Source: Diaminobutyricimonas sp. LJ205
GTDB lineage: Bacteria; Actinomycetota; Actinomycetes; Actinomycetales; Microbacteriaceae
Assembly: GCF_009755725.1 (NCBI RefSeq)
Contig: NZ_CP046619.1
Coordinates: 2,728,001 to 2,792,000 of the forward strand
DNA length: 64,000 nt
Reading direction: 5' to 3'
How positions within the stretch are numbered: position 1 is the first letter of the stretch; the number at the start of each line of letters is the position of its first letter. The notes under the pieces were generated by a model that was not told where the DNA came from, did no database searches, and worked only from the letters and a program-made list of their open reading frames with translations. Of this stretch, positions 1 through 54,097 are shown in pieces. The position numbers were made by a program, and so were the translations under genes.

Positions 1-159
1 GAACTCCGGCTGGCGCAGGAAATGGACGCCTTCGGGCTCCTGGTGCTGACCGGTGCCACCCGCGACAGTGACGTCGCGGGCCTCGGCCCCGAGCTGCGCC
101 CGCACCTCGTGGCGGACAGCGTCCGCCACATCAACTCACTGCTGTCTCCCTATCTCTGA
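1..159 (+). CDS. HAD-IIA family phosphatase, C-terminal fragment
   Basis: Only the last 52 codons lie in the window; the frame is open at base 1 and ends in TGA. The fragment reads ..FGLLVLTGATRDSDV.. and ..PHLVADSVRHINSLL.., which matches the C-terminal end of HAD subfamily IIA phosphatases (NagD / 4-nitrophenylphosphatase type), where an LVLTG strand is followed by a segment with a conserved Asp-Ser before the last helix. It ends 12 bases before the kinase gene at 172, in the same direction, so it is probably in the same operon. A phosphatase beside a phenol-phosphorylating kinase would suit removal of an aryl phosphate later in the pathway. The family call rests on a short stretch; the role is inference. 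Confidence 0.6.
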   Translation, partial: ELRLAQEMDAFGLLVLTGATRDSDVAGLGPELRPHLVADSVRHINSLLSPYL

Positions 160-171
160 AGGAGTACCACC

Positions 172-2004
172 ATGAGCACCTCCGACCACTTCCCCTTTAT
201 CCGTGAGTTCCAGCCGCCCGCCGGGGCCGAAGGCTGGGAGCGGATGTACCCGTACTTCCTGACCTCGCAGCCCGAGGGCGAACAGCTCGAAGACGAGCGC
301 CTCTGGTTCGCCGACACCATGCACTGGTCGCGCGCGGTGTACCCGCTCGACAGCATCGGCGCCGAAGCGGTTTACCTGGGCGCCGGGCAGAACAGCGCAC
401 GCATCTTCGCGCTGCCCACCTCGCTCGGCCTGGACATGCGCGTGGTCAACGGGTACGTCTACATCTCCCCCACCGGCATCACGGACCCGGACGTGATCAA
501 CGAGCGGCTCGTGCACTTCCAGGAGCGCGCCGGCTACTACTTCGCCAACTGGGAGGAGCTGTACGAGCAGTGGAAGAACAAAATGACCTCGGTGGTCGAA
601 GCCATGCGCGGCATCGATTTCCCGGCCCTCGCCGAGTACGAACCGATTGAGGTGGTCACCGAGGCCCGCGGCCGCTCGACCGCGTGGGACCTGATCGCCA
701 GCTACCACAAGCTGATCGACGACTTCTTCGTTGCCTGGCAGTACCACTTCGAGTTCCTCAACCTCGGCTACGGCGGTTACATCACCTTCTTCCAGACCTG
801 CAAGCAGTTCTTCCCCGAGATCTCGGACCAGTCGGTAGCCCGGATGGTCGCCGGTGTCGACGTGCTCGCTTTCCGTCCGGATGACGAGTTGCGCGGCCTC
901 GCGCGTAAGGCAGTTGAACTCGGCGTCGACAGCATCGTCAGCAGCGGTGATGACCCGGCGGCGATTATCGCGAGCCTGCGTGACAGCGAGAACGGCCGGG
1001 CGTGGATCGACGCGCTCGAGACCGCGAAGGATCCGTGGTTCAACTACTTCGCCGAGTACGGCTTCCTGCATGACCAGGACACCTGGCTGTCGAACCCGTC
1101 CATCCCCTTCGCCGGCATCGCTCGGTATATCGAGATGCTGCAGGGCGGCGAGGAGATCGCCCGGGATGTCGCCAAGCTACGCACCGAGCGTGACGCCATC
1201 GTCGCCGAATACCGCGGGCTGCTCGCGGAGGACGAAGCGGCGCAGTTCGACGGCATGCTGCAGCTTGCGCGCACGGTGTTCCCGTTCATCGAGGAGCACA
1301 ACATCTACGTCGAGCACTGGACCCACTCGGTGTTCTTCCAAAAGCTGCGCGAACTCTCCGCGCGGCTGGTCGAGGTCGGATTCTTCGCCGACGCCGAGGA
1401 CATGTACCTGCTGAACCGGATCGAACTCGACGAGGTGCTGGCCGACGTGGTCCAGTCGCATGTGATCGGCGTTCCCGCCCGGGGCGTGCAGAAGTGGCGC
1501 GCGGAAGTCGCCGAGCGTAAGGGCATGATGACCGCCCTGCGCTCGCAGGCCGCGGCACCCGCCCTCGGCACCCCGCCTGCGGAGATCACCGACCCGTTCG
1601 CGATTATGAACTACGGGGTCACCACCGAGCGCATCCGCGACTGGCTCGGCCAGTCGAGCGGCGAAGGCGCGCTCACCGGGGCGGCAGCATCCCCCGGCGT
1701 CGTCGAGGGTATGGCCCGGGTGATCCTGACCGAGAAGGACCTGCCGCAGCTGCAGCCGGGCGAGATCCTGGTCGCCCCGATCACCGCCCCATCGTGGGGT
1801 GCGGCGTTCTCGGTGGCATCCGCAGTGGTCACCGACATCGGCGGCATGATGTGCCACGCCGCGATCGTCTGCCGCGAGTACGGGCTGAGCGCCGTCGTCG
1901 GCACCGGCTTCGCCACCAGCCGGATCAAGACCGGTCAGCGCATCCGAGTGAACGGCGACGACGGCACGGTGACCATCATCGGTGAAGCAGAGGAGGCAGC
2001 ATGA
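172..2004 (+). CDS. PEP-synthase-like phenol kinase, phosphohistidine subunit (CreH/HpeH-like)
   Basis: 610 residues, homologous along its length to the creH product in this window (shared N-terminal PPxGAEGWE..YPY block, central YHFEFLNLGYxxY). The C-terminal mobile PEP-utilising domain carries VTDIGGMMCHAAIVCREYG, with His562 as the expected phosphocarrier. There is no nucleotide-binding domain; that is supplied by the next gene. Known two-subunit enzymes of this type (CreHI, HpeHI) transfer a phosphoryl group from ATP to the hydroxyl of a phenol. The start is the ATG at 172, with GGAG eight bases upstream. The stop overlaps the next start by four bases (ATGA), implying coupled synthesis. 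The lack of a neighbouring P450 here suggests a phenolic other than 4-cresol. Family is firm; substrate is inference. Confidence 0.85.
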   Translation: MSTSDHFPFIREFQPPAGAEGWERMYPYFLTSQPEGEQLEDERLWFADTMHWSRAVYPLDSIGAEAVYLGAGQNSARIFALPTSLGLDMRVVNGYVYISPTGITDPDVINERLVHFQERAGYYFANWEELYEQWKNKMTSVVEAMRGIDFPALAEYEPIEVVTEARGRSTAWDLIASYHKLIDDFFVAWQYHFEFLNLGYGGYITFFQTCKQFFPEISDQSVARMVAGVDVLAFRPDDELRGLARKAVELGVDSIVSSGDDPAAIIASLRDSENGRAWIDALETAKDPWFNYFAEYGFLHDQDTWLSNPSIPFAGIARYIEMLQGGEEIARDVAKLRTERDAIVAEYRGLLAEDEAAQFDGMLQLARTVFPFIEEHNIYVEHWTHSVFFQKLRELSARLVEVGFFADAEDMYLLNRIELDEVLADVVQSHVIGVPARGVQKWRAEVAERKGMMTALRSQAAAPALGTPPAEITDPFAIMNYGVTTERIRDWLGQSSGEGALTGAAASPGVVEGMARVILTEKDLPQLQPGEILVAPITAPSWGAAFSVASAVVTDIGGMMCHAAIVCREYGLSAVVGTGFATSRIKTGQRIRVNGDDGTVTIIGEAEEAA

Positions 2005-3125
2005 CAATCCTCACCGATTCCACGGCGCCGGAGGCGTCGGACCTGAGCCTGGTGGGCGGTAAGGCCCTCGGGCTGGCCAGGATGACCGCGGGCGGCATCC
2101 CGGTCGCCCCCTGGCTGACGGTGTCGACGCGGGTGCACCGCGCGTTCCTCGAGCAGACGCAGCTGAACTTGCGAATCGAACGCGTGATCAACGCGATCGA
2201 CTGGAGTTCGCAAGACAGCCTGGCGGACGCCGAGCGCCAGATCGCCGCGATCTTCGCTGAGACTCCGGTCCCTTCCGACATCGCCGAGGATGTGGTCGCC
2301 GGATACCGGGGGCTCGCCGAACGACTCGGGGTGCCCGAACTCTCGGTCGCGGTCCGGTCATCGGCGACCGCGGAGGACACTGCTGACTCGAGCTTCGCCG
2401 GCGAGTACGAGACCTACGTCGGAATCACCGGCGCCGAGCAGGTCGTCGAGTACGTCAAGCTGTGCTGGGCGAGCGGTTTCACCGCCCATGCCCTGGCGTA
2501 CGCGCACGACCGCGGGTTCTCTCCGCTGGCGGTGTCTATGGCGGTCGTGGTTCAGAAGACGGTCAAGGCACGTGCGGCCGGGGTCATGTTCACCCTCAGT
2601 CCCGCAACCGGCGATCGTTCGCGGATCGTGGTCGAGGCCAGCTGGGGGATCGGGCTCGCCGTCGTCGGCGGCGAGGTCACTCCAGACCGGTACGCGGTCG
2701 ACAAGGTGAGTCTCACCATCCTCGACCGCATCCCCGGCGACAAGAAGATCGAGTACCTAGATGGGCAGACCTCGACACCGGTCGATGACGCCCGACAGGC
2801 GCAACTCTGCCTGTCCGACAGCGAGGTGCTCGAGTTGGCACGGCTGGGGAAGGCATTGGAGAAGCAGCAGGGCGGCCCGCAGGACATCGAGTTCGCGATT
2901 GACCGCGAACTGGCCGACGGGGCGAACATCATCCTGCTGCAGTGCCGTCCCGAGACGGTGTGGTCGACGCGCAAGCGCGCTGCTGCCGCGGCCCTGCCGC
3001 TGATGGATCAGGTTGCCGCGAGCGTGTTCGGGCTCGGCAAGCCCGGCTCGGCGGACTCCGCCGGCTCGGCCGGATCTCCCGGTAAGCGTGCCTTCGTTCT
3101 GACGGAGGTCGGCCATGCCCATTGA
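2001..3125 (+). CDS. PEP/pyruvate-binding-domain ATP-grasp subunit of phenol kinase (CreI/HpeI-like)
   Basis: 374 residues, the size of a stand-alone PPDK_N domain (ATP-grasp fold). Visible family blocks are LVGGKALGLARM near the N terminus, VAVRSSATAEDTADSSFAGEYET, and QDIEFAID with LLQCRPETVWS at the C terminus. It would bind ATP and phosphorylate the catalytic His of the partner at 172-2004. The C-terminal 40 residues are Ala/Gly/Ser-rich and contain a GSADSAGSAGS linker absent from the other copy at 20.7 kb. Its last 11 bases overlap the next gene. Product type is secure from motifs and pairing; substrate is not known. Confidence 0.85.
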   Translation: MTILTDSTAPEASDLSLVGGKALGLARMTAGGIPVAPWLTVSTRVHRAFLEQTQLNLRIERVINAIDWSSQDSLADAERQIAAIFAETPVPSDIAEDVVAGYRGLAERLGVPELSVAVRSSATAEDTADSSFAGEYETYVGITGAEQVVEYVKLCWASGFTAHALAYAHDRGFSPLAVSMAVVVQKTVKARAAGVMFTLSPATGDRSRIVVEASWGIGLAVVGGEVTPDRYAVDKVSLTILDRIPGDKKIEYLDGQTSTPVDDARQAQLCLSDSEVLELARLGKALEKQQGGPQDIEFAIDRELADGANIILLQCRPETVWSTRKRAAAAALPLMDQVAASVFGLGKPGSADSAGSAGSPGKRAFVLTEVGHAH

Positions 3126-4464
3126 TGCGCACTGGGATGCCGACAGCGACACCCGACCGTGGGCGGAGACGCAGCAGGCGCAGCTACGGCAGGTGCCGGA
3201 GTTCATCCGGCGCCTGTCGGCAGCGTCGGAGGCGTGGCGGGATCATCTTCAGGGGGCGGATGTCTCGGAGCAGACCTCCGTCGAGAGCCTCAGCAGCATC
3301 CCGTTCACCACCAAGGACGACCTGCGCGCCAGCCAGGCTGAGACGACGGTGGGCAATCCGCTCGGTCGGCTACAGGCCGCGCCAACCGGTGAGCTGGTAC
3401 AGATCATCGCGTCGTCAGGGACGACCGGGACGCCGGTGTTCTTCGGACTGACAGAGGGCGATTGGGCGCGTTGGAAGCACAGCATCGGCAACGCCTTCTT
3501 CACCGCCGGAGTGCGGCGGCCGAGCGTGGTCGCACTGACCACGGGCATGCCCATGGTTGCCGGCGGCATCGCCTACGCCGACGCCATTCGAGAGGCTGGC
3601 GGCACGCTGGCCTGGGTCGGAGGGCAGACCGTGCCACGTACCGCGACGATCCTCGAGCGGTTGAGCGTCGATGTGTTCGTCGGCACGGCCTCGTACGCCA
3701 CCTTCTTCGCCGACCGGGTCGCCGAAGAACTCGGCAAGCCAGCCACCGAACTGTCGGTGCGCACGATCATCGGTGGCGGCGAGCCGGGCCTCGGCGTGCC
3801 CGAGATCCGCGAGAAAGTCGCCGCAGCCTGGGGAGCAACCCGCGTGAGCGAGATCATGGGGCTCGGCGACGTGCTGCCTGCCATGTGGGCGGAGTGTCCC
3901 GTCGGCCAGGGCATGCACTTCACCGCAGCACCCAGCGTGTTGGTCGAACTGATCGACCCGGACAGCCGCGAGCATGTGCCCTGGGAGCCGGGCGCCACCG
4001 GAGAAGCCGTTTACACGACGCTGCTACGGGAAGCATCGCCCGTTGTTCGATTCCGGTCGCGCGACCACATGCAGGTCACCGCGGTGGACTGCGCCTGCGG
4101 GCGCACCTCCCCCACCGTGCGCTGCATCGGCCGCACCGACGACATGCTCATCTACAAGGCGATGAACGTGTTCCCGTCGGCGATCCGCGAGATCGCCTTG
4201 GGCGCCGGCGAGGGAAGGCTGACTGGTGCGATGCGTATTCGTAAAGACAGCGCCGCGCAGGTGCGCTTCGACGATCCGATCCCCGTAGAGATCGAGGTGC
4301 GGGATGACGTGTCCGTCGCCGAGCAGACCGCGCTGCTGGATGCCATCGCCGAGCAGGTGCGGCAGCAACTGCGGGTGCGGATCCGCCCCGAAGCGTTGCA
4401 GCCGGGCACGATCCCGGTCGGCGCCTACAAAAACGCACTCACCTACGTCCCCGAGCCACGATGA
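3115..4464 (+). CDS. Phenylacetate-CoA-ligase-family (PaaK-like) acyl-CoA synthetase
   Basis: 449 residues, similar to PaaK (about 440). The AMP/ATP loop is IIASSGTTGTPVFFGLT, there is a central GGGEPG block, and the C-terminal hinge GRTDDMLIYKAMNVFP is the family signature. Such enzymes make an acyl-AMP from ATP and an aryl acid and pass the acyl group to CoA. The ATG at 3115 overlaps the previous stop by 11 bases and has GGAGG upstream; the next gene overlaps by four bases. In context it may activate an aryl acid or beta-keto acid made after phenol phosphorylation. The substrate cannot be read from sequence. Confidence 0.8.
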   Translation: MPIDAHWDADSDTRPWAETQQAQLRQVPEFIRRLSAASEAWRDHLQGADVSEQTSVESLSSIPFTTKDDLRASQAETTVGNPLGRLQAAPTGELVQIIASSGTTGTPVFFGLTEGDWARWKHSIGNAFFTAGVRRPSVVALTTGMPMVAGGIAYADAIREAGGTLAWVGGQTVPRTATILERLSVDVFVGTASYATFFADRVAEELGKPATELSVRTIIGGGEPGLGVPEIREKVAAAWGATRVSEIMGLGDVLPAMWAECPVGQGMHFTAAPSVLVELIDPDSREHVPWEPGATGEAVYTTLLREASPVVRFRSRDHMQVTAVDCACGRTSPTVRCIGRTDDMLIYKAMNVFPSAIREIALGAGEGRLTGAMRIRKDSAAQVRFDDPIPVEIEVRDDVSVAEQTALLDAIAEQVRQQLRVRIRPEALQPGTIPVGAYKNALTYVPEPR

Positions 4465-5345
4465 GCGTCGAACAGAAGGCGCTCGATTTGGACGGAATCA
4501 GCGCAATCGATGTGCATGTGCACATCGACGTCGACGATCACGGCCACGCGTCCCTTCCCGATGCGTTGATGGCGGGAGCACACGCGCACTTCCAGTCATC
4601 CGGCGGCATCCCGAAACTAACCGAGATCGCCGAGTACTACCGCGAACGCTCGATGGCCGCGGTGGTGTTCACCGTGGATTCCGAGTCGGTGACCGGCCAT
4701 CGCGCGATCTCGAACGACGAGATCGCCGACGGCGCGGCCGCCAACTCAGACGTGCTCATCCCGTTCGGCAGCATCGACCCGGCGAAGGGTGATGTGGCGG
4801 TGACCGAGGCGCGGCGGCTGGTCACCGAGCGCGGCATCCGCGGTTTCAAGCTGCACCCGAACCTGCAGGCCTTCTTCCCCAATGATCGGAGCGTGTACCC
4901 GTTCTACGAGGAGATTCAGGCCCTGCAGGTGCCGATCATTTTCCACACCGGGCAGAGCGGGATCGGATCGGGGATGCGTGGCGCTGGCGGGCTGCGGCTC
5001 AAGTACTCGAACCCGATCCACCTCGATGACGTCGCGGTGGACTTCCCCGACCTGCGCATCATCATGGCGCATCCGTCCTTCCCCTGGCAGGACGAGGCAC
5101 TCGCTGTGGCGACCAAGAACCCCAACGTGTACATCGACCTGTCGGGGTGGTCGCCGAAGTACTTCCCGCCCAACCTGGTGCAGTACGCGAACAGCCTGCT
5201 GAAGGAGCGGGTGCTCTTCGGATCGGACTATCCGTTGCTCACGCCCGACCGCTGGATCGCCGACTTCGACAAGCTCGAGATCAAATCCGACGTGCGGCCG
5301 ATGATCATGAAGCAGAACGCGATGCGGGTGCTCGGCCTCGGGTAG
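4461..5345 (+). CDS. Amidohydrolase-2 family metal-dependent hydrolase
   Basis: 294-residue TIM-barrel protein. The N-terminal AIDVHVHIDV gives the metal-binding HxH pair; later blocks are GFKLHPNLQAF, PIIFHTGQSG, RIIMAHPSFPW and LFGSDYPLLTPDRW with the usual barrel-end Asp. The family includes decarboxylases and hydrolases; one relevant relative known to me is the 4-hydroxyphenyl-beta-ketoacyl-CoA hydrolase CouO of Rhodococcus p-coumarate catabolism. Placed directly after a CoA ligase (ATGA overlap), a beta-ketoacyl-CoA hydrolase role releasing 4-hydroxybenzoate or vanillate plus acetyl-CoA is plausible. That specific role is inference. Confidence 0.8.
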   Translation: MSVEQKALDLDGISAIDVHVHIDVDDHGHASLPDALMAGAHAHFQSSGGIPKLTEIAEYYRERSMAAVVFTVDSESVTGHRAISNDEIADGAAANSDVLIPFGSIDPAKGDVAVTEARRLVTERGIRGFKLHPNLQAFFPNDRSVYPFYEEIQALQVPIIFHTGQSGIGSGMRGAGGLRLKYSNPIHLDDVAVDFPDLRIIMAHPSFPWQDEALAVATKNPNVYIDLSGWSPKYFPPNLVQYANSLLKERVLFGSDYPLLTPDRWIADFDKLEIKSDVRPMIMKQNAMRVLGLG

Positions 5346-5362: not shown

Positions 5363-5866
5363 CTACGCCGCGGCGCGCTCCCAAGTGAGGTAGGAGTTGA
5401 CCTCGACGCCACCGGACATGATCGGCACCGCAGTCGACAGGTGCAGGTTCTTGCCGTCCGTCTCCACCACGCGCGGCTGGGTCTGGCCGATCCAGTTCGG
5501 GAACATCGACACGGTCATGCCGTGCGTCAGCGCTTCGTCCGAGACCTCGAACGGGCCGGAGTAGGCGATGTAGCTCATCGACTTCTCCATCGCTTCGCTC
5601 TCGGTGACGTTGAACCAGTCGCCGGATGCCACCGGCTTGCGCTCCGGGTTCATCAGCTGGGCCGACATGAAGCCATCGGGCGTGTACATGATGATGCCCA
5701 TCGGGTCCTCTCCCAGCGGATGGCGGTCAGCGGAGCCATCGGTCGGGCACTCAACGTAAGAGACGAGATTCCACGCGCCGATCAGGGTGTTGCGGAGTTC
5801 TTCGGCGGTCATGGCGGTCTTGTTCATTTTCGTTTCTTTCGCTGTGTGTGGTTTGGACGTATCCAT
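5363..5866 (-). CDS. Lipocalin-like domain protein
   Basis: About 167 residues from the ATG at 5866 (GGAAAG just upstream); starts at 5827 (MNKTAMTAEE) or 5902 are also possible. The core LIGAWNLVSYVECPTDGS..PLGEDPMGIIMYTPDGFMSAQLM is typical of the small lipocalin-like domain often found near aromatic or ketone catabolism genes and without a settled function. No signal peptide or membrane segment is visible, so it is probably cytosolic. It converges on the amidohydrolase gene (17-base gap) and is divergent from a LysR regulator, its likely controller. Confidence 0.65.
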   Translation of the reverse strand: MDTSKPHTAKETKMNKTAMTAEELRNTLIGAWNLVSYVECPTDGSADRHPLGEDPMGIIMYTPDGFMSAQLMNPERKPVASGDWFNVTESEAMEKSMSYIAYSGPFEVSDEALTHGMTVSMFPNWIGQTQPRVVETDGKNLHLSTAVPIMSGGVEVNSYLTWERAAA

Positions 5867-13110: not shown

Positions 13111-13671
13111 GTGACCGTCCACTCAGCAACCCCAGTCCCGGCACCGACCGCTGTTCCGAGTTCGGCGCGGCCCCGCATCGCGCGCAGTGCCGCCTGGACG
13201 GCCGTCGCCTTCCTGCTCGCGGACTTCATCATCAGCGTCGCGGCTTTGCTCAGCGGTCTTGACACCTTCGACCATTCGACGGGCCTGGGCTTGGCGTCCG
13301 AAGCAGTCGCCGCCGTGGCCTTCATCGCCGGCGCAATGGCGCTTTCGGCGCTCGCACCCCAACGACAGCGACTCTTGTGGCTTCCCGCGGTTCTGGGCCT
13401 GCTGGCCTCAGGGATTGTCATGTTCGGGGTAATCATCACTGGCGCGGAGGCGCCAGAGCTCATCGCGACGATTGTGATCGGCCTGATGGCATTCGGTCTC
13501 CTCCTCGTCGGCATCCTGGGCTCGATTCGGCGCACGGTGTGGCCATGGTGGGTCGGGGTTGGCGTCGCACTGATCGTGCCGGTGATGTTCTTCGTCCTGC
13601 TCAATGCGATCGTGCTCGCCCTGATCTGGACAGGTGTTGCACTCACCGCGCGATCCCACCCGAGATCCTGA
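13111..13671 (+). CDS. DUF6069-like small integral membrane protein
   Basis: 186 residues from GTG 13111, with AAAGGA seven bases upstream. Four hydrophobic segments are visible (about 25-50, 65-90, 95-120, 135-175) after a Pro/Ser-rich N terminus. The pattern, with a TAVAFLLADFIISVAALLSG first helix, resembles the DUF6069 group of actinobacterial four-helix membrane proteins without known function. It lies directly before the sensor kinase gene and might share its physiology, but no role can be assigned. Confidence 0.7.
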   Translation: MTVHSATPVPAPTAVPSSARPRIARSAAWTAVAFLLADFIISVAALLSGLDTFDHSTGLGLASEAVAAVAFIAGAMALSALAPQRQRLLWLPAVLGLLASGIVMFGVIITGAEAPELIATIVIGLMAFGLLLVGILGSIRRTVWPWWVGVGVALIVPVMFFVLLNAIVLALIWTGVALTARSHPRS

Positions 13672-13697
13672 CGGGCTCGATGCCTCGCCGCTACACT
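13668..13697 (+). promoter_or_regulatory. Candidate promoter of the histidine kinase gene
   Basis: CTGACG (13668-13673) and TACACT (13692-13697) are 18 bases apart; TACACT lies six bases before the ATG at 13704, which has no Shine-Dalgarno. This fits a leaderless sigma-70-type promoter. Confidence 0.45.
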
Positions 13698-13703
13698 GCG
13701 GCC

Positions 13704-15743
13704 ATGCCGACAACGGGGGGCCGCGCGCAGACGAGTGTCGCCCGTGCGGTCCCCTGGGTGCTCTGGATGATTCTGCTTGGTGGCGCCGTGGCGGTGGTCG
13801 CTTCGCTTCCTGCCGCGTGGCGCTTGCACACGACAATCTGCGATGGCAGCCACTGCCCCGCGGGCACCGCGACCTCAGCGGCGGCGTCCCGCCTGGAAAG
13901 CATTGGACTCTCCCTCCCCGGCTACGCCGCAGCAGGCCTCGCGATGCTGGTGCTCATCACGGCCGCCTGCCTGATTGTTGCGGCCCTCCTCCTGCGCAGC
14001 TCCAGCAGCAATGCCGGTGCACTCGTTGGGGCCGCCGCGCTCATCGCGATCGGGGTGGCCTTCCCACAGACGATTCCGGCGCTCGCTGTCGAAAACCCGG
14101 AACTCGCGTGGCTGCCGGCACTGGTGGACGGCTCGATTGTGCTTGTGGCGTGGTGGGTGGCGAGCTTTCCCGATGGCATCATCCGCACAAGGATCGGTTG
14201 GGCGGCGGTTGCGGCGTCCGTGGTGTTCGCCATCCTTCCCTGGCTCGGCCTGTTTCTGCGACTGCCGGGATGGCTGGCGCCGACCCTCACCCTCGTCACC
14301 GCAGGGTTGCTGCTGTCGGCGCTGATCACCAACCTCCTCACTGCGCCGCCCGAGAGGCGCCGGGTGATGGGCGGAGCCCTGTCCGCGCTCGCTGGCGCAA
14401 TCCTGGTGCTGTCGCTCGCGACGATTCTGCAGAACACCGATTTCGTCGTGGTGGGCACGCTGGTCGACCTCGCACTCCAGACGCTTCTGATGCTCGCCTT
14501 CCTCGCGATGCCGATGGCGATTGCTGGCGCTGTGCTTCGCCGCGGACTATGGGGAACCGCGCCGTCGATCGTGCGCACACTGTCCGCGACGGCCGTGACC
14601 ACAGTGGCGCTCGGGGTGTTCATCGCGGGTGCGCTGGTGCTCGGTACTCTCGGCGCCGAGCCCGCTGTCGCGCTCGCGGTGCCCGTCACGGTTGTCGCAC
14701 TCGCGCTGCAACCGTTGGCCGCAGGAGTGCATGCGCTGGTGCGGCGGCTGCTGACCGGGAGCACCGCCGACCGGCAGCGCGCGCTCGGCGACCTCGGAGC
14801 GAGCCTCGCCATTGCCGCGGACCTCGATCGGGCACCTGAGTCGGTCGCGGATGCGGTCGCCGCGGCGCTTGGATGGCGCACGGCGCGAGTCGTCGGATCC
14901 GTCCCCGGCCAATCCGAACGCGACGCTGGCGGCGACGTCTGGCTTCCCCTGCTGCACGCTTCGAGCGTTGAAGGATGGCTCGTGCTGACACCCCGGCGCC
15001 CAGGTGCGATGCTCGAACCCTCACAGCGTGAGGCGATCGCCCCGGTTGCCGCGCACCTTGCCTCCGTCCTCCATGCGAACCGGCTCGCCGAGGACCTGCG
15101 CGACTCGCGGCGAGCGCTCGTGGTCGCACGCGAGGATGAGCGCCGCCGTGTGCGCGACGACCTGCACGACCACGTCGGTCCCACGCTCGCGGCGGCGGTG
15201 ATGACGTTGGGGGCCGCCGAACACGAATCCAGCCGGAACCCGGAGGCCGCCACCGGTTACGTGCGCGACGCGCGGCAGCAAGTCAGCGACGCGGTCGCCA
15301 CCATCCGGCGAATCGTCTACGGACTCCGACCGCCGGCGCTCGACGACCTCGGCCTTGTCGGGGCGGTCACCGCGTTCACTCGCGGGCTGCAGACGCCAAT
15401 GACACTAACGGTCGAGTCGGGTACGAGCCTTCCACCGCTGTCCGCATCGGTTGAGTCGGCTGCCTACGCGATCACACTCGAATGCGTGTCCAACGCGCTG
15501 CGGCACTCGGGCGGCACCGAATGCTCGGTGCGCATTCACATGGACCGCGATGAGCTGGTGATCGAAATTGAGGACAACGGCCGGGGCGTGATCTCGCCGA
15601 TCGACGGGGTGGGCACTGAATCGATCCGCCAGCGCGCCGCCGAACTGGGCGGATCCTTCGAACGCCTGACGAGAAATGGCGACGGGACACTCGCGCGGAC
15701 GCGCCTGCCGACCGGACCGAACGCTCAGGAGGAGAGCGCATGA
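13704..15743 (+). CDS. NarL-system sensor histidine kinase (HisKA_3 type)
   Basis: About 679 residues from ATG 13704. The N-terminal half has many hydrophobic segments (roughly ten between residues 15 and 350). A GAF-like or linker region follows, then HisKA_3 with phosphorylation site DDLHDHVGP (His488) and a short HATPase_c domain (ALRHSGG N-box region, EDNGRG). It should autophosphorylate and pass phosphate to the response regulator that overlaps its stop by four bases. Upstream ATG 13680 would add eight residues; 13704 was chosen for the -10-like hexamer six bases before it. The signal sensed is unknown. Confidence 0.85.
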   Translation: MPTTGGRAQTSVARAVPWVLWMILLGGAVAVVASLPAAWRLHTTICDGSHCPAGTATSAAASRLESIGLSLPGYAAAGLAMLVLITAACLIVAALLLRSSSSNAGALVGAAALIAIGVAFPQTIPALAVENPELAWLPALVDGSIVLVAWWVASFPDGIIRTRIGWAAVAASVVFAILPWLGLFLRLPGWLAPTLTLVTAGLLLSALITNLLTAPPERRRVMGGALSALAGAILVLSLATILQNTDFVVVGTLVDLALQTLLMLAFLAMPMAIAGAVLRRGLWGTAPSIVRTLSATAVTTVALGVFIAGALVLGTLGAEPAVALAVPVTVVALALQPLAAGVHALVRRLLTGSTADRQRALGDLGASLAIAADLDRAPESVADAVAAALGWRTARVVGSVPGQSERDAGGDVWLPLLHASSVEGWLVLTPRRPGAMLEPSQREAIAPVAAHLASVLHANRLAEDLRDSRRALVVAREDERRRVRDDLHDHVGPTLAAAVMTLGAAEHESSRNPEAATGYVRDARQQVSDAVATIRRIVYGLRPPALDDLGLVGAVTAFTRGLQTPMTLTVESGTSLPPLSASVESAAYAITLECVSNALRHSGGTECSVRIHMDRDELVIEIEDNGRGVISPIDGVGTESIRQRAAELGGSFERLTRNGDGTLARTRLPTGPNAQEESA

Positions 15744-16399
15744 GCACGACCCCGATCATCACCGTCGGCATCGCCGACGACCACGCTCTGTTCCGACGCG
15801 GCGTACGTGCCATGCTCGCCACTGTCGACGGCATCGAGCTGGTCGGCGAAGCCGCCGACGGCGATGAGGCCGTGAGACTCGCCGTCACCGAGGCGCCCGA
15901 TGTGCTCCTGCTCGACATCCGCATGCCCGGGCGGAGCGGGATCGAGGCGCTCCGGATGATCCGGACCCGCGCACCCGAGGTCGCCGTCGTCCTGCTCACG
16001 ATGGTCGACGCGGACGAGTCAGTCGCCGAGGCCCTCCACGGCGGAGCGCTCGGTTACGTCCTCAAGGGCGCGGAGCCTGACGAACTCATCCGCGCCATCC
16101 AGGCCGCTGCGCGCGGCGAACTTCTGTTCGGCGCGAGCATCGCCCCCCACGCCGCCGCGTTGCTTCGGGGTTCATCGGGACCATGGGAGCCACCGCTGCC
16201 GGAGCTCCGCGAGCGCGAGCGTGAAGTGCTCGACCTGCTCGCAGCGGGGCTGGATGCCGACGGCATTGCCGTGCAACTCCACCTCAGCGTGAAATCGGTG
16301 CGCAATATCCTTGCCGCGATCCCGCGCCGGCTCGGCGTTGCCACACGGGCGGAGGCAGTGGAATCGGCGCGGCGCGCTGGGCTTGGGCGGCGGGCGTAA
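15740..16399 (+). CDS. NarL/FixJ-type response regulator
   Basis: 219 residues. The receiver domain has the acidic pair GIADDHALF, phospho-acceptor Asp59 in DVLLLDIRMPGRSG, Thr in LLTMVDADE and Lys in YVLKGAEPDE. The C-terminal LuxR-type helix-turn-helix is recognisable (REREVLDLLAAGLDADGIAVQ..SVKSVRNILAAIPRRLGV) though it departs from consensus: the usual NKEIA and TVKTHV segments read ADGIA and SVKSVR. It is coupled to the kinase by an ATGA overlap, forming a pair. Targets are not evident. Confidence 0.85.
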   Translation: MSTTPIITVGIADDHALFRRGVRAMLATVDGIELVGEAADGDEAVRLAVTEAPDVLLLDIRMPGRSGIEALRMIRTRAPEVAVVLLTMVDADESVAEALHGGALGYVLKGAEPDELIRAIQAAARGELLFGASIAPHAAALLRGSSGPWEPPLPELREREREVLDLLAAGLDADGIAVQLHLSVKSVRNILAAIPRRLGVATRAEAVESARRAGLGRRA

Positions 16400-16436
16400 C
16401 GCCAGCGGTTGGCCCGCCCCATGAGACGCTTTTGAG

Positions 16437-17204
16437 ATGGCGAACTCCCCGTCCGGCGACTCGATGGTGCAGCGCATCGTGCGCGTTCTCGCCACATTCA
16501 ACAGCAGCCGGACCACTCAAACTCCGACAGAGATCGCCCGCCGCGCGGGGCTTCCCGTCTCGAGTGCCCACCGGATCGTGGGCGAGCTGGAGGCATCCGG
16601 CCTCCTGGAACGAGACGAAGCCGGCACCGTCCGGATCGGCCTGCACCTGTGGGAACTGACCACTCGCGGATCGCGTGCGCTCGGCCTGCGGCAGCTCGCC
16701 ATGCCGTTCATGACCGACGTGCAGCGACAGATCCGCGAACACACCCAACTTGCTGTGCTCGACGCGAACGAGGTGCTGTTCATCGAGCGACTGTCGGATC
16801 GCGGTTCCGGGGCGAACATCACCAAGGTGGCCGGTCGTCTGCCGATTCACGCGTCCTCATCCGGGCTGGTGCTGCTGGCGCATGCCGATCCAGCCCTGCA
16901 GGAGCTGGTGCTGGCGTCTCCCCTCCAGGCCGCATCGGCCGAAACGATCACCGACCCCCGGGTGCTTCGCGACAAACTGCACGAGGTGCGACAGCTCGGG
17001 TACGCGTTCGCACCGGGTTCCATCGAATCGGTGTCGACCGGCATCGCAGTGCCGGTGAAGGACCCATTCGGCGGCGTGATCGCAGCGCTGTCGGTGGTGC
17101 TGCCGCGTGGCAAGGAGGAGCAATCCACCACTGTGCGAGTGCTCCAACAGGCCGCGACGGGGATCACACAGGCGATCAGAGAGAGCAATTTCATTTCTCA
17201 TTGA
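16437..17204 (+). CDS. IclR-family transcriptional regulator, upstream of pobA
   Basis: 255 residues. N-terminal winged helix (VQRIVRVLATFNSSRTTQTP, TEIARRAGLPVSSAHRIVGEL shortened to ARRAGLPVSSAHRIV) and a C-terminal IclR effector domain (LFIERLSDRGS, LPIHASSSGLVLLAH). It lies 94 bases before the 4-hydroxybenzoate hydroxylase gene, same strand, so it is the probable PobR-like regulator of that gene or of the cre genes. IclR proteins bind aromatic acids such as 4-hydroxybenzoate in several actinobacteria. Effector is inference. Confidence 0.85.
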   Translation: MANSPSGDSMVQRIVRVLATFNSSRTTQTPTEIARRAGLPVSSAHRIVGELEASGLLERDEAGTVRIGLHLWELTTRGSRALGLRQLAMPFMTDVQRQIREHTQLAVLDANEVLFIERLSDRGSGANITKVAGRLPIHASSSGLVLLAHADPALQELVLASPLQAASAETITDPRVLRDKLHEVRQLGYAFAPGSIESVSTGIAVPVKDPFGGVIAALSVVLPRGKEEQSTTVRVLQQAATGITQAIRESNFISH

Positions 17205-17298
17205 ATGGGAATCGGCCACCGGTCGGCAGCTGCGGACACCGAGAATGGCCAGAACAGCACGCTCACCGTCGAGCCAACTCACCGTCGAAGGAGACATC

Positions 17299-18492
17299 GT
17301 GACGAATACCGTTCGCACCCAGGTCGGCATCATCGGCGCAGGTCCTGCCGGGTTGATGCTCTCGCACCTGCTGCACGGCGCGGGCATCGACTCGATCGTG
17401 ATCGAGAACCGCAGCCGTGAAGAAGTCGAGCAGACCATCCGCGCCGGCATCCTCGAGAACGGCACGGTGGAGCTCCTCACCGAGACCGGCGCCTCCGACC
17501 GGGTGCTCGCCGAGGGACACCGGCATGATGGCGTCGAGTTCCGCTTCGGCGGCGAGGGGCACCGCATCGACTTCGCCGACCTGGTCGGCCGCGCGGTCTG
17601 GCTCTACCCGCAGCACGAGGTGTTGAAGGATCTGATCGCGACCCGCCTTCGTGACGGTGGCGACATCCGGTTCGGGGTCACGGCAAGCCGGGTTGCGGAT
17701 GCCGATACCGACGCCCCGCGGATTATCGGCACCGACGCGGAAGGCGCGCCATTCGAGATCGTCGCCGACTTCGTGATCGGTGCTGACGGTTCACGCAGCG
17801 TCGCCCGTGAGGCGGTGACTGGGTCGTCGACCGGCGGTTACTTCCGCGAGTACCCGTTCGCCTGGTTCGGCATCCTCTGCGAGGCGCCGCCGAGCGCACC
17901 GGAGCTCATCTACAGCGCCTCTGAGCATGGCTTCGCGCTGATCAGTCAGCGCAGCGACACGGTGCAGCGGATGTACCTGCAATGCGACCCGGAACTCGAT
18001 CCGAACTCGATGAGCGACGCCGAAATATGGGACTCGCTGCAGCTGCGAACCGGGGGCGGTCTCATCGAGGGGCCGATCTTCCAGCGCGACGTGCTGCGGT
18101 TCCGCAGCTTCGTCGCCCACCAGCTGCGGCACGGCCGGGTGTTCCTGGTCGGTGACGCCGCTCACACGGTGCCGCCCACGGGTGCCAAGGGGCTGAATCT
18201 CGCGGTCGCCGACGTGCGGCTGCTGAACCAGGCGCTGCAGGAGTTCTATAGCGCCGGCTCCACGACCGGGCTCGACGAGTTCCCCGAGCGGGCCTTGAAG
18301 CGGATCTGGCGGGCGCAGCACTTCTCATGGTGGATGACGAGCATGCTGCACTCGGCTCCCGACGCGTCGGACTTCGACGAACGGCGCCGTCGCGGCGAGC
18401 TCGAGTCGGTAGTCTCCTCACGGGCGGGCCGACAGTACCTCGCCGAGGCGTACACCGGGTGGCCGTTCGAGGGCGGCGGTTCCGCGAGCTGA
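17299..18492 (+). CDS. pobA: 4-hydroxybenzoate 3-monooxygenase
   Basis: 397 residues from GTG 17299 with AAGGAG six bases upstream; PobA is usually about 394. It has the FAD-binding GAGPAGLMLSHLLHGAGID at the N terminus, the DG-type motif VIGADGSRSVAREA, and the PobA hallmark GDAAHTVPPTGAKGLNLA. It hydroxylates 4-hydroxybenzoate to protocatechuate with NAD(P)H and O2, in the cytosol. This is the step that consumes the end product of the cre pathway encoded downstream. An open frame extends upstream into iclR but the GTG is the start that gives the family length. Confidence 0.93.
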   Translation: MTNTVRTQVGIIGAGPAGLMLSHLLHGAGIDSIVIENRSREEVEQTIRAGILENGTVELLTETGASDRVLAEGHRHDGVEFRFGGEGHRIDFADLVGRAVWLYPQHEVLKDLIATRLRDGGDIRFGVTASRVADADTDAPRIIGTDAEGAPFEIVADFVIGADGSRSVAREAVTGSSTGGYFREYPFAWFGILCEAPPSAPELIYSASEHGFALISQRSDTVQRMYLQCDPELDPNSMSDAEIWDSLQLRTGGGLIEGPIFQRDVLRFRSFVAHQLRHGRVFLVGDAAHTVPPTGAKGLNLAVADVRLLNQALQEFYSAGSTTGLDEFPERALKRIWRAQHFSWWMTSMLHSAPDASDFDERRRRGELESVVSSRAGRQYLAEAYTGWPFEGGGSAS

Positions 18493-18524
18493 CGCCACGC
18501 TTCACGACGCAGGGAGGGACGCCG

Positions 18525-19319
18525 ATGGCAGGCCGGAACCGCGAGCCCGGACGGACCGTGACCACGAAGGTCCTCGCCATCTTTGAAGCGTTCGAAAAAT
18601 CGCGGGGTGCGCTCTCCCTCACCGAGATCGCCGAGGGTTCGAACCTGCCGTTGAGCACGGCCCATCGGCTGGTCAGCGAGTTGACCGACTGGGGTCTGCT
18701 CTACCGCGGCACGCACGGCCGCTACCAGCTCGGCATCCGCCTGTGGGAGCTCGCCCAGAATGCGTGGCGTCCGCTGCGGGAGACCGCGCGGCCATTCATC
18801 CAGGATTTGTTCTCCCTCACGGGCGAAACGGCTCACCTCGCTGTCCGCGAAGGCAACGAGGTGCTCTACATCGACCGGGTCTACGGTTCCAAGCGCGTGC
18901 CGCGCGCGTCGCGGGTCGGCGGGCGGTTGCCCATGCACGCGACCGCGGTGGGCAAGGTGATCCTCGCCTTCGAGGAGGAGTGGGTGCGCAGCGCCTACCT
19001 GGATCGCCAGTTGGAGCATCGGACCCCGCACACGCATGTCGACCCGCGTCGATTCGCCGACGAGCTCACGCAGATCAGGGAGCAGGGCTATGCGACCACC
19101 CTCGAAGAAGTCCGGCTGGGCTCCTGCTCGATTGCTGTGCCGGTGTTCCACACCGGCCGGGTCGGCGCCGGGCTTGGCCTGGTGATGCTGTCGACGCAGG
19201 CGGCGACGATGACACGGCACCTGCCGACCCTGCTCGGGGTGTCCACTCAGATCGAGGGGGCGACCGCGCATATCCCCCTCGAGGCGTTTCTCGCACGAGG
19301 GTCCGCGCTTCGCGACTAG
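18525..19319 (+). CDS. IclR-family regulator, likely of the cre operon
   Basis: 264 residues from ATG 18525, with GGGAGGG nine bases upstream. It has an IclR winged helix (TKVLAIFEAFEKSRGALSLT, SNLPLSTAHRLVSELTDWGL) and effector domain (VLYIDRVYGSK, LPMHATAVGKVILAF). Only 32 bases separate it from pobA, so they may be co-transcribed. It sits directly before the P450-led cre operon, whose upstream region holds a good IclR-type dyad, so it is the best candidate for CreR. C. glutamicum also has a regulator beside its cre genes. Confidence 0.85.
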   Translation: MAGRNREPGRTVTTKVLAIFEAFEKSRGALSLTEIAEGSNLPLSTAHRLVSELTDWGLLYRGTHGRYQLGIRLWELAQNAWRPLRETARPFIQDLFSLTGETAHLAVREGNEVLYIDRVYGSKRVPRASRVGGRLPMHATAVGKVILAFEEEWVRSAYLDRQLEHRTPHTHVDPRRFADELTQIREQGYATTLEEVRLGSCSIAVPVFHTGRVGAGLGLVMLSTQAATMTRHLPTLLGVSTQIEGATAHIPLEAFLARGSALRD

Positions 19320-49992: not shown

Positions 49993-50718
49993 GTGACCGC
50001 AACCAGACGATTGGCGCTCGCTGCGGGCGTCTTCTACCTCCTCACGTTCGCCTTCTCGATTCCGGCATACTTCCTCTATGAGCCGGTGCTGACCGACCCC
50101 GGGTACATCGTCAGCGACGGCGGCGCCGACACGCGGATCACCCTCGGCGCACTCCTTGAGTTTCTTACCGCCCTCGCGGGCATCGGGACCGCCGTCGCGG
50201 TATACCCCGTGATCAAACGGCAGAGCCAGGCCGCTTCACTCGGCTTCGTCACGACACGGAGCTTCGAAGCGGCCGTGATGATGATCGGCGTCATTGCGCT
50301 GATGTCGATCGTGGGCCTGCGTCAGGCCGGGGCATCCGCTGGCACCGATGACGCGGCGATGGTCGCCGTCGGCCAGGCGCTGATTGAGATCCGTGACCAA
50401 ACGGCCCTCTTCGGACCCGGCTTCGTGCCTGCCCTCAACGCACTGTGCTTCGGCTACGTGCTGCGGTCGCGGCTGGTGCCGCGCCTCATTCCGGCGCTGG
50501 GTCTCATCGGGGCTCCCCTGCTCATGGCATCGGCGATCGGAACGATGTTCGGGCTCCACGGCGATGGGTCGGTGTTCGCGGCCATTGCGCTCGCCCCGAT
50601 CTTTGTTTGGGAGCTATCGATCGGGTTGTGGATGACGTCCAAGGGGTTCAGGCCTGCGGGGTTGGCGGCGCTTGGAATCGACGCCAGCGAGCACATCAGT
50701 CCATCACCACGGCGATGA
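49993..50718 (+). CDS. DUF4386-like integral membrane protein
   Basis: 241 residues from GTG 49993 (GGAAGGA seven bases upstream; GTG 49975 is an alternative). Six hydrophobic segments are visible. The start RRLALAAGVFYLLTFAFSIP and the central NALCFGYVLRSRLVPRLIPALG match the DUF4386 family, whose function is unknown. Its 3' end overlaps the convergent pyruvate carboxylase gene by 23 bases. Confidence 0.75.
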   Translation: MTATRRLALAAGVFYLLTFAFSIPAYFLYEPVLTDPGYIVSDGGADTRITLGALLEFLTALAGIGTAVAVYPVIKRQSQAASLGFVTTRSFEAAVMMIGVIALMSIVGLRQAGASAGTDDAAMVAVGQALIEIRDQTALFGPGFVPALNALCFGYVLRSRLVPRLIPALGLIGAPLLMASAIGTMFGLHGDGSVFAAIALAPIFVWELSIGLWMTSKGFRPAGLAALGIDASEHISPSPRR

Positions 50719-53700: not shown

Positions 53701-54097
53701 TCAAAACCGGGACCCCCGCGGCGATCGCCATTTCCTTGGCCGTGACCTTGTTGCCCGCCATCTCGAGCACCGACCGGGGAGGACCGATGAAGGCAATACC
53801 CGCGTCGGCGGCGGCCTGCGCAAGGTCGGGGTTCTCGCTGAGGAACCCGTATCCCGGATAGATCGCATCCGCGCCCGACAGCTTGGCGACCCGGATGATC
53901 TCCCCCACATCCAGGTAGGCACGCACCGGATGACCGGGCTCACCGATCTGGTACGCCTCGTCGGCCTTCAGCCGATGCAGCGAGTTGCGGTCCTCGTAGG
54001 GGAACACCGCCACAGTCTTCGCACCGAGTTCATACGCCGCCCGGAACGCGCGAATCGCGATCTCACCGCGGTTCGCGACCAGGATTTTGCGGTACAT
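50696..54097 (-). CDS. pyc: Pyruvate carboxylase
   Basis: 1133 residues, the full-length single-chain form. Order: biotin carboxylase (KILVANRGEIAIRAFRAAYE, ATP loop AVAGGGGRGMRRV, EMNPRIQVEHTVTE), carboxyltransferase of the HMGL-like fold (VTDTTFRDAHQSLLATRVRT, MAGLLRAGA), PYC_OADA linker, and biotin carrier domain with EAMKMEA (biotinylated Lys). It makes oxaloacetate from pyruvate, bicarbonate and ATP. It starts 38 bases after glyA on the same strand and so may be read from the glycine-riboswitch leader. Confidence 0.95.
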   Translation of the reverse strand: MYRKILVANRGEIAIRAFRAAYELGAKTVAVFPYEDRNSLHRLKADEAYQIGEPGHPVRAYLDVGEIIRVAKLSGADAIYPGYGFLSENPDLAQAAADAGIAFIGPPRSVLEMAGNKVTAKEMAIAAGVPVLKSSPATTDIDVLVTAAEEIGYPVFAKAVAGGGGRGMRRVNTREELRPALEAAMREADSAFGDPTMFLEQAVIRPRHIEVQILADTAGEIVHLFERDCSVQRRHQKVVEIAPAPNLDEDVRQAMYRDAVAFAKSIGYVNAGTVEFLLDTAGDRAGEHVFIEMNPRIQVEHTVTEEVTDVDLVQAQMRIAAGLTLAELGLTQDQIQLRGAALQCRITTEDPASDFRPDTGKITTYRSPGGAGVRLDGGTVAAGAQVSPHFDSMLAKMTCRGRDFDTAVTRARRGLAEFRIRGVTTNLAFLQAVLADPQFQAGDLSTSFIDERPELVHTHGSKDRGTKVLHWLADVTVNQPNGAGAGLIDPAVKLPPIDRNTAPPSGSRQRLLELGPAGFAHALRGQEALAVTDTTFRDAHQSLLATRVRTKDLVAVMPHIARMTPDLFSVEAWGGATFDVALRFLGEDPWQRLAAMREALPNVAIQMLLRGRNTVGYTPYPTEVTDAFVREAAATGVDIFRIFDALNDVDQMRPAIDSVLDTGSTVAEVALCYSGNLLDPSENLYTLDYYLRLAEQIVDAGAHILAVKDMAGLLRAGAAEVLVTALRDRFDLPVHVHTHDTAGGQLATLLAAARAGADAVDAASAPMAGTTSQPSLSALVAALAHTERDTGISLQAVSDLEPYWESVRRVYAPFESGLAGPTGRIYKHEIPGGQLSNLRQQAIALGLGDRFEVIEDWYAEANRILGRPTKVTPSSKVVGDLALQMAAAGVDPAEFESEPGNYDIPESVIGFMAGELGDLPGGWPEPFRTKVLEGRTVKGGTSPITEAQQAKLRGTSDERRLMLNQLLFPQPTQDFLRAREHYGDLSVLRTSDYLYGLKPGVEHVIELEQGVDVYVELEAIGEPDGKGMRSVMATLNGQMRPVTVRDRSITVDTVQVEKADPSLPGHVGAPFMGVVTVQATEGDTVAVGDTIATIEAMKMEAAITSPVAGTIQRVATNPVQQVEAGDLIAVVMD

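What the first reader, a model, noticed from the sequence alone, without database searches (positions are those of the whole stretch)
1..5345. Second phenol-phosphorylating cluster without a P450: possible hydroxyphenyl-ketone pathway
Seen: HAD-IIA phosphatase end, CreHI/HpeHI-like kinase pair, PaaK-like ligase and amidohydrolase-2 gene, all coupled. Known: in the Rhodococcus hpe pathway, HpeHI phosphorylates 4-hydroxyacetophenone/acetovanillone, a biotin carboxylase HpeCBA adds CO2 and a phosphatase then acts; CouO-type amidohydrolases hydrolyse hydroxyphenyl-beta-ketoacyl-CoA. Inference: this cluster could make 4-hydroxybenzoate or vanillate plus acetyl-CoA from such ketones, feeding PobA. 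The combination of kinase, ligase and hydrolase in one operon looks little described.
Basis: partly seen in the sequence, partly recalled or inferred. Interest (0 to 1): 0.75.

Follow-up and report, generated by a model that had tools for sequence, protein, structure and literature searches.

The report
Rearranged operon for degrading 4-hydroxyacetophenone
An actinobacterium carries a complete eight-gene operon that most likely adds phosphate and CO2 to the lignin-type ketone 4-hydroxyacetophenone and splits it to 4-hydroxybenzoate; the pathway is known, but this copy belongs to a second family with its own gene order and an interchangeable CoA-ligase.

Summary
Past base 1 a biotin carrier, a biotin carboxylase and a carboxyltransferase (CT) lie directly upstream of the HAD-IIA phosphatase, the CT overlapping it by 4 bases. 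The operon is BCCP-BC-CT-phosphatase-kinase H-kinase I-PaaK-like ligase-amidohydrolase, with a divergent IclR gene. These are the eight roles of the published Rhodococcus GD02 Hpe pathway, so the combination is described. Two things differ. (1) The CT falls in a group of 15 clusters (59-65% identity to the window; the other 67 of 80 loci kept are at 48% or less). All 14 in which six core genes match have the order C-A-B-D-H-I; 21 of 22 such clusters of the other kind have H-I-C-A-B-D. GD02's solved HpeI falls with the latter. (2) The ligase is PaaK-family in 4 of 15 and acetoacetyl-CoA-synthetase-like in 8 of 15; its type needs three changes on the core tree, even between sister Arthrobacter and sister Georgenia clusters. 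In Aromatoleum toluclasticum a sibling cluster follows an ethylbenzene-dehydrogenase-type operon, pointing to 4-hydroxyacetophenone. The window genome has pobA and pcaH but no VanA_C hit. Nothing was assayed. New variant of a known kind.

The parts
1..159 (+). 3' end of the HAD-IIA phosphatase gene (HpeD role; 286 aa, start at L004:19299, 702 bases of it before the window). Upstream of it, outside the window: carboxyltransferase L004:17842-19302, biotin carboxylase L004:16494-17849, biotin carrier protein L004:15952-16497, divergent IclR regulator L004:15064-15861 (-). L004 position minus 20000 = window position.
172..2004 (+). Two-component dikinase, large subunit (HpeH/AcvA role), swivel domain with TDIGGMMCHAA histidine motif
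   Evidence: 61-66% identical to 14 sibling clusters, 46% to the CreH-like paralogue in the window
2001..3125 (+). Two-component dikinase, ATP-grasp subunit (HpeI/AcvB role)
   Evidence: HpeI tree
3115..4464 (+). PaaK-family AMP-forming CoA ligase in the slot where most sibling clusters carry an acetoacetyl-CoA-synthetase-like ligase (HpeE role)
4461..5345 (+). Amidohydrolase-2 (HpeF/CouO-like beta-ketoacyl-CoA hydrolase role)
17299..18492 (+). 4-hydroxybenzoate 3-monooxygenase (pobA), expected next step
   Evidence: NF006091 516 bits, cut-off 351; TIGR02360 399 bits, below its cut-off of 538.7

Best explanation
A complete Hpe-type operon for 4-hydroxyphenyl methyl ketones, most likely 4-hydroxyacetophenone. 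Inferred steps: (1) H+I phosphorylate the phenol with ATP (ATP to AMP + Pi) through a phospho-histidine on H; (2) the three-subunit biotin carboxylase adds CO2 to the acetyl methyl group of the phosphorylated ketone; (3) the HAD-IIA phosphatase removes the phosphate, giving 4-hydroxybenzoylacetate; (4) the PaaK-family ligase makes its CoA ester, a job done by another ligase type in most siblings; (5) the amidohydrolase splits the beta-ketoacyl-CoA to 4-hydroxybenzoate and acetyl-CoA; (6) PobA and the pca pathway finish. Shown here: gene content, coupling, motifs, relatives, ligase exchange. Inferred from GD02 biochemistry: every reaction.
For: Whole operon found upstream and in the window. GD02 HpeHI, HpeCBA and HpeD were shown to act in this way, with HpeEF proposed (PMC9618137: abstract, first part of Results with Table 1, Discussion). 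The eight GD02 genes let RHA1 grow on both ketones (PMC13101465: abstract, section heading and passages). C-A-B-D-H-I in 14 of 14 clusters of the group in which all six match. In Aromatoleum toluclasticum (L038) the sibling cluster follows an ethylbenzene-dehydrogenase-type gene (alpha subunit 1840 bits to 2ivf_A), with an SDR and a thiolase-superfamily gene, which could turn 4-ethylphenol into 4-hydroxyacetophenone. Own genome: pobA and pcaH (340.5 bits, over cut-off), no VanA_C. Sister clusters carry either ligase type, so both probably serve the same step. Motifs for biotinylation, CT lysine and phospho-His are intact.
Against: The kinase is not in the clade of the one characterised HPE kinase whose sequence I had: GD02 HpeI (9goj) falls with the H-I-C-A-B-D group, and the root between that group, the Cre-type kinases and the window's group is unresolved, so substrate transfer from GD02 is indirect. 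HpeHI also phosphorylates 4-hydroxybenzaldehyde, vanillin and cresol (PMC12167813 section 6), so kinase specificity is weak evidence. The Aromatoleum dehydrogenase could serve ethylbenzene and only happen to be adjacent. The ligase resembles phenylacetate-CoA ligase more than any known beta-ketoacid ligase. The closest hydrolase relative found (68%, L138) is outside such a cluster, and 6 siblings have no hydrolase in the DNA held. A strict HAD motif-IV pattern was not found in the phosphatase or in 13 of its 14 siblings. No expression or activity data.
Confidence: 0.82

Rival explanations
1. Same chemistry, but the natural substrate is acetovanillone or another ring-substituted or longer 4-hydroxyphenyl ketone; vanillate or an analogue is excreted or demethylated by an unrecognised enzyme.
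For: GD02 and A. macra enzymes convert acetovanillone about as fast as 4-hydroxyacetophenone (PMC13101465 section 10, Table 4). Kinase specificity is broad.
Against: No VanA_C match in a 99.6% complete genome, while pobA and pcaH are present. P450- or THF-dependent demethylases were not searched.
Confidence: 0.13
2. A CreHI-like phenol/cresol phosphorylation pathway in which the carboxylase, ligase and hydrolase serve a different substrate.
For: The kinase subunits are 45-47% (H) and 39-43% (I) identical to Cre-type pairs, and the tree root is unresolved.
Against: All 15 carboxyltransferase loci of the group have H beside them, in one fixed order; the three Cre-type neighbourhoods I looked at (L034-L036, 18-19 kb each) hold no carboxylase homologue; a separate H/I pair already lies at 20.7-23.7 kb of the window.
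Confidence: 0.04
3. The PaaK-like ligase is not part of the pathway (for example a phenylacetate or hydroxyphenylacetate ligase that happens to be adjacent), and step 4 is done by another ligase in the cell.
For: Closest named families are phenylacetate-CoA ligases. One close relative (G205, 61%, with an in-frame stop) lies outside any hpe-type cluster.
Against: The ligase follows I in clusters of four genera, although 3 of these were found through the carboxylase and so say nothing about how often it occurs elsewhere; it stands where sister clusters have an ACS-like ligase; it overlaps its neighbours by 11 and 4 bases.
Confidence: 0.1

Closest known systems
Hpe pathway, hpeHICBADEF of Rhodococcus rhodochrous GD02 (PMC9618137, PMC12167813, PMC13101465)
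   Same: All eight roles: two-component dikinase, three-subunit biotin carboxylase, NagD-like HAD phosphatase, AMP-forming CoA ligase, CouO-like hydrolase, in one tight operon.
   Different: Gene order C-A-B-D-H-I-E-F instead of H-I-C-B-A-D-E-F; HpeI lies in another clade; the ligase is PaaK-family, whereas GD02 HpeE is closest to AcsA2 (42%, Table 1 of PMC9618137).
AcvABCDEF of Sphingobium SYK-6 (as described in PMC9618137 and PMC13101465; own paper not read)
   Same: Kinase, carboxylase, phosphatase.
   Different: Ligase and cleavage steps are encoded elsewhere by unrelated VceA/VceB; sequences not compared here.
4-hydroxyacetophenone carboxylase XccBCA/HacABC with AcsA1 and TioL1 of Aromatoleum aromaticum EbN1 (PMC10715001, passages)
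   Same: Biotin carboxylase acting on 4-hydroxyacetophenone; hpeHI homologues nearby according to PMC9618137.
   Different: Anaerobic, acetoacetyl-CoA-ligase-like enzyme and predicted thiolase at the end. EbN1 sequence not obtained; the congener A. toluclasticum (L038) is in the window's clade.
CreHI of 4-cresol degradation (Cre-like pair in the window, 20.7-23.7 kb; label recalled and from PMC9618137)
   Same: Two-component phenol dikinase.
   Different: 45-47% (H) and 39-43% (I) identity between the window pair and Cre-type pairs; the three Cre-type neighbourhoods examined hold no carboxylase, phosphatase, ligase or hydrolase of this set.
Phenylacetate-CoA ligase PaaK (4r1l) and PaaK-like 2-hydroxyisobutyryl-CoA synthetase (6hdw)
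   Same: Sequence family and adenylation motif SSGTTG.
   Different: Far below the PaaK equivalog cut-offs (184.5 bits against 700; 145.2 against 646.3); forms its own subfamily, 4 of whose 5 members found are in this kind of cluster.

Membership tests
Hpe/Acv pathway | Two-component ATP dikinase H+I with swivel-domain histidine | tested here: met
Hpe/Acv pathway | Three-subunit biotin carboxylase in the same operon | tested here: met
   BCCP with EVMKLMN, BC, CT with RDGNQS and YLKDPAG
Hpe/Acv pathway | HAD-IIA (NagD-like) phosphatase in the operon | tested here: met
   (TIGR01460 104.6 bits, cut-off 100.15)
Hpe/Acv pathway | HpeE of acetoacetyl-CoA-synthetase type | tested here: not met
   the ligase is PaaK-family, whereas siblings L037 and L041 carry acetoacetate-CoA ligases over the model cut-offs. 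SYK-6 lacks an HpeE homologue (PMC9618137), so I treat this as a variable feature
Hpe/Acv pathway | HpeF/CouO-like amidohydrolase | tested here: met
   54-59% to the 7 siblings that have it; 55-56% to amidohydrolases between an SDR and an AMP-ligase gene in 2 genomes (CouO label inferred from context; CouO itself not compared)
Hpe/Acv pathway | Gene order HICBADEF as in GD02 | tested here: not met
   CABDHI, then E-F
Hpe/Acv pathway | HpeI in the clade of GD02 HpeI | tested here: not met
   9goj groups with L110 (100/99) inside the HICABD group
Hpe/Acv pathway | Phosphorylation then carboxylation of a hydroxyphenyl ketone | not testable with these tools
   needs enzyme assays
CreHI 4-cresol pathway | Kinase in the Cre clade | tested here: not met
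   the window's clade and the Cre-type clade are each on one side of a branch
PaaK phenylacetate-CoA ligase | Over the equivalog cut-off of TIGR02155 or NF041878 | tested here: not met
   145.2 against 646.3 bits; 184.5 against 700 bits

The most novel reading that the evidence does not exclude
There are two anciently separate, differently ordered lineages of the phospho-carboxylation pathway for hydroxyphenyl ketones. The window's lineage exchanges its CoA ligase again and again among three types (PaaK-like and two acetoacetyl-CoA-synthetase-like groups). Its PaaK-like member would be a 4-hydroxybenzoylacetate:CoA ligase, an activity I recall no record of in that family.
Probability: 0.6. Interest if true: 0.55.

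Novelty: new variant of a known kind. Interest (0 to 1): 0.48.

Why it matters
Hydroxyphenyl ketones are frequent products of oxidative lignin fractionation, and the 2022 account found the complete syntenous cluster in only four additional genomes (PMC9618137). A second lineage, spread over Actinomycetota and Betaproteobacteria, offers alternative enzymes for lignin valorisation. The repeated ligase exchange gives a natural test of which step is free to vary, and assigns a testable new activity to a PaaK-like subfamily.

Tried and rejected
Rejected: a phenylphosphate-carboxylase-type route (the carboxylase is biotin-dependent, and PMC9618137 says the phenylphosphate enzyme is not homologous to HpeCBA). 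Rejected: the Cys before the catalytic His of H as a marker of HPE kinases; the window has it (as GD02 does according to passages of PMC12167813), but siblings are split between Cys and Ser. Rejected: the claim that the window's kinases are sisters of the Cre kinases; the midpoint-rooted tree put them together (98/93), but with a PEP-synthase outgroup the three-way root is open. Led nowhere: a plasmid search with the CT found 17 records, none at 60% or more; they belong to other CT groups. I could not obtain GD02, A. macra, SYK-6 or EbN1 sequences except GD02 HpeI through 9goj. Not done: structure predictions; a search for vanillate demethylases other than VanA_C proteins; annotation of the P450 cluster; the supplement of PMC9618137 (its Fig. 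S5 shows hpe homologue combinations) was not seen.

Limits of the counts: one search kept the best 80 of 331 relatives and used two peptide patterns, so rarer or more diverged clusters are missed. All sibling clusters were found through the carboxyltransferase, so the presence of the carboxylase in them is by construction, and 3 of the 5 PaaK-like subfamily members were found that way too; the only search with the ligase itself is (394 class genomes: own, G205 at 61%, two at 35-40%). L056 and L057 appear to be the same contigs as L033 and L032 (equal contig lengths), so L028-L033 are left out of the order counts (21 of 22 HICABD, all from the 80 loci, some cut in one gene by a contig end; the exception is L059, AHICBD). 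Motif patterns and how many had them: ELHSHC 1 of 15, KLHP 1 of 8, DxHxH 5 of 8, GSDYP 6 of 8, HAD motif IV 1 of 15 (not the window); the patterns were recalled and strict, so I draw no conclusion from the misses. The trees are quick trees without bootstrap.
Full report
What is there. The window is G000:C1:2728001-2792000 of a one-contig 3.22-Mb genome. I fetched 20 kb upstream (L004) and a bridging stretch (L005). The operon begins 4 kb before the window: biotin carrier protein L004:15952-16497 (Biotin_lipoyl 1e-15, EVMKLMN), biotin carboxylase 16494-17849, carboxyltransferase 17842-19302 (HMGL-like and PYC_OADA), HAD-IIA phosphatase from 19299 to window 159, then in the window kinase H 172-2004, kinase I 2001-3125, PaaK-like ligase 3115-4464, amidohydrolase 4461-5345. 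Six of the seven junctions overlap by 4 to 11 bases; D and H are 12 bases apart. An IclR gene (L004:15064-15861) diverges from the first gene. IclR-type genes also match in 12 of the 14 sibling clusters.

What is known. In Rhodococcus rhodochrous GD02, HpeHI phosphorylates acetovanillone and 4-hydroxyacetophenone, HpeCBA carboxylates only the phosphorylated ketones, and HpeD dephosphorylates the products; HpeE (closest to AcsA2, 42%) and HpeF (95% to CouO) are proposed to finish (PMC9618137: abstract, the first part of Results with Table 1, and Discussion read). Four additional genomes had the complete syntenous cluster. The eight genes together enable growth of RHA1 on both ketones (PMC13101465: abstract, introduction, section 10 and passages). 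The HpeI structure is 9GOJ (PMC12167813: abstract, section 6 and passages). The window operon has all eight roles.

A second lineage. An alignment of the carboxyltransferase (A1) was scanned against genome contigs: 331 relatives, the best 80 kept. There is a sharp break: 13 loci at 59-65% identity, the remaining 67 kept at 48% or less. One more (61%) came from 118 genomes of genus g113. In an even draw of 396 genomes from the phylum, 7 had a match at 1e-90; apart from the window's own genome, the 6 others were at 44-46%. With the window this makes 15 clusters, in Micromonospora, Georgenia, Arthrobacter, Nocardioides, Actinophytocola, Microbispora, Nonomuraea, Streptomyces, genus g113, the window genus, and the betaproteobacteria Aromatoleum toluclasticum and Eoetvoesiella caeni. 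Gene order follows the split: C-A-B-D-H-I in 14 of 14 clusters of this group in which all six genes match (the fifteenth, L042, is cut by its contig end after C-A-B-D-H), H-I-C-A-B-D in 21 of 22 such clusters among the other loci. In the HpeI tree of 49 rows the group is one clade (100/100), and GD02 HpeI falls in the other group beside Sphaerisporangium (100/99). With a PEP-synthase outgroup the branching among this group, the other group and the Cre-type kinases stays open. The H tree shows the same three groups.

Ligase exchange. Of the 15 clusters, 4 carry the PaaK-like ligase (window, A. hankyongi, Nonomuraea harbinensis, Georgenia EYE_87; 56-64% identical to each other), 8 an acetoacetyl-CoA-synthetase-like ligase, 2 none in the DNA held, and 1 is cut. 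The eight fall into two groups of four, 64-71% and 63-84% alike inside, 46-51% between; two of the eight were run against NCBIfam and pass the acetoacetate-CoA ligase cut-offs. On a tree of the concatenated core (A, B, D, H, I) the type needs at least three changes; sister clusters with full support differ: Arthrobacter CAU 1506 (ACS-like, upstream of C) against A. hankyongi (PaaK-like), and Georgenia EYE_87 (PaaK-like) against two other Georgenia (ACS-like). The window's own place in that tree, beside the two betaproteobacteria, is weak (83/82). The PaaK-like proteins form one subfamily (100/100) with a single outside member, a lone gene with an in-frame stop in another genome of the window's family. 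Of 394 class genomes, 4 had a match at 1e-60, the window's own included. Two unlike proteins filling one slot in otherwise orthologous operons are best explained as equivalents for the same step.

Substrate. Directly upstream of the A. toluclasticum cluster lie an SDR, an ethylbenzene-dehydrogenase-type enzyme (alpha subunit 1840 bits to 2ivf_A), genes that look by eye like its partners, and a thiolase-superfamily gene that NCBIfam calls a lipid-transfer protein. For a substrate that must carry a phenol hydroxyl, this reads as 4-ethylphenol to 4-hydroxyacetophenone, the logic known from EbN1, which uses a different first enzyme (PMC10715001, passages); an ethylbenzene operon that merely lies next door is not excluded. 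The window has pobA 12 kb downstream and the genome pcaH at 193 kb, but no VanA_C match, although the same search finds the family in 4 of 14 control genomes. I therefore favour 4-hydroxyacetophenone to 4-hydroxybenzoate.

Last step. The amidohydrolase is 54-59% identical to those of the 7 siblings that have one; 6 siblings have none in the DNA held, and L042 is cut. In 25 genomes of g113, 4 had a match at 1e-40: two at 55-56% between an SDR and an AMP-ligase gene, which fits a CouO neighbourhood (label inferred); one at 68%, the closest find of all, beside another AMP ligase at a contig end with alcohol and aldehyde dehydrogenase-like genes (L138; the same genome has a second, 42% match); and one at 41%. 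So the hydrolase family is shared with other aromatic pathways. Aromatoleum may use the thiolase instead, so the cleavage step probably varies too.

Is it in print? Searches for HpeHI/acetovanillone, 4-hydroxyacetophenone with biotin carboxylase, HpeE/HpeF/phenylacetate-CoA ligase, hpeHICBADEF and related terms, and searches for the Novosphingobium MarK work and the Aromatoleum pathway, listed the papers cited; I saw none that pairs a PaaK-like ligase with this pathway, but most listed papers were seen only as titles and abstract starts, and no supplements were read. The MarK survey cited by PMC13101465 (52 of 836 kinase-carboxylase clusters) was not found in the library and may include some of these clusters.

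Verdict.

Noticed in passing
L120 (Sphingomonas bisphenolicum plasmid pBAR1) and L121 (Pseudomonas putida YC-AE1 plasmid): Carboxylase-phosphatase modules with a Tm-1-like ATP-binding protein in place of the H/I kinase; 17 of the 80 loci have it at 50% or more and none of these also has H/I at the thresholds. In L121 an acetoacetate-CoA ligase and an amidohydrolase flank it. Possibly the MarK-type single-component kinase; not tested.
   Followed up: partly
L053, L055, L059, L060 (Thermomicrobium, Sphaerobacter and bacterium HR28): A further arrangement in which no biotin carboxylase match lies between carrier and carboxyltransferase, with a different PaaK-like ligase (33-34%) downstream.
   Followed up: no
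L122 (Rhodococcus pyridinivorans plasmid pA, 0-12 kb of the locus): A related carboxylase (CT 38%) beside a PEP-utilising and a PPDK-like gene, a thiolase with an OB-fold partner and a tyrosine phosphatase: perhaps a phospho-carboxylation pathway for another substrate.
   Followed up: no
L138 (G788:C223, first 9 kb): The closest relative found of the window's amidohydrolase (68%) lies beside an AMP ligase cut by the contig end, alcohol and aldehyde dehydrogenase-like genes and a Rieske-type oxygenase pair by eye: perhaps another aromatic side-chain pathway.
   Followed up: no
L132 about 13380-16640 (own genome about 198-202 kb): An IclR gene 48% identical to the operon's IclR next to an FAD monooxygenase and a dioxygenase-like gene (gentisate type by eye), possibly a sister regulator of another phenol pathway.
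   Followed up: no
window 50696-54097 (-): An 1133-aa single-chain pyruvate-carboxylase-like protein, only distantly related to the operon's carboxylase (BC 43%, CT 28%).
   Followed up: no
window 5363-5833 (-): Lipocalin_5 domain protein gene convergent with the operon end.
   Followed up: no
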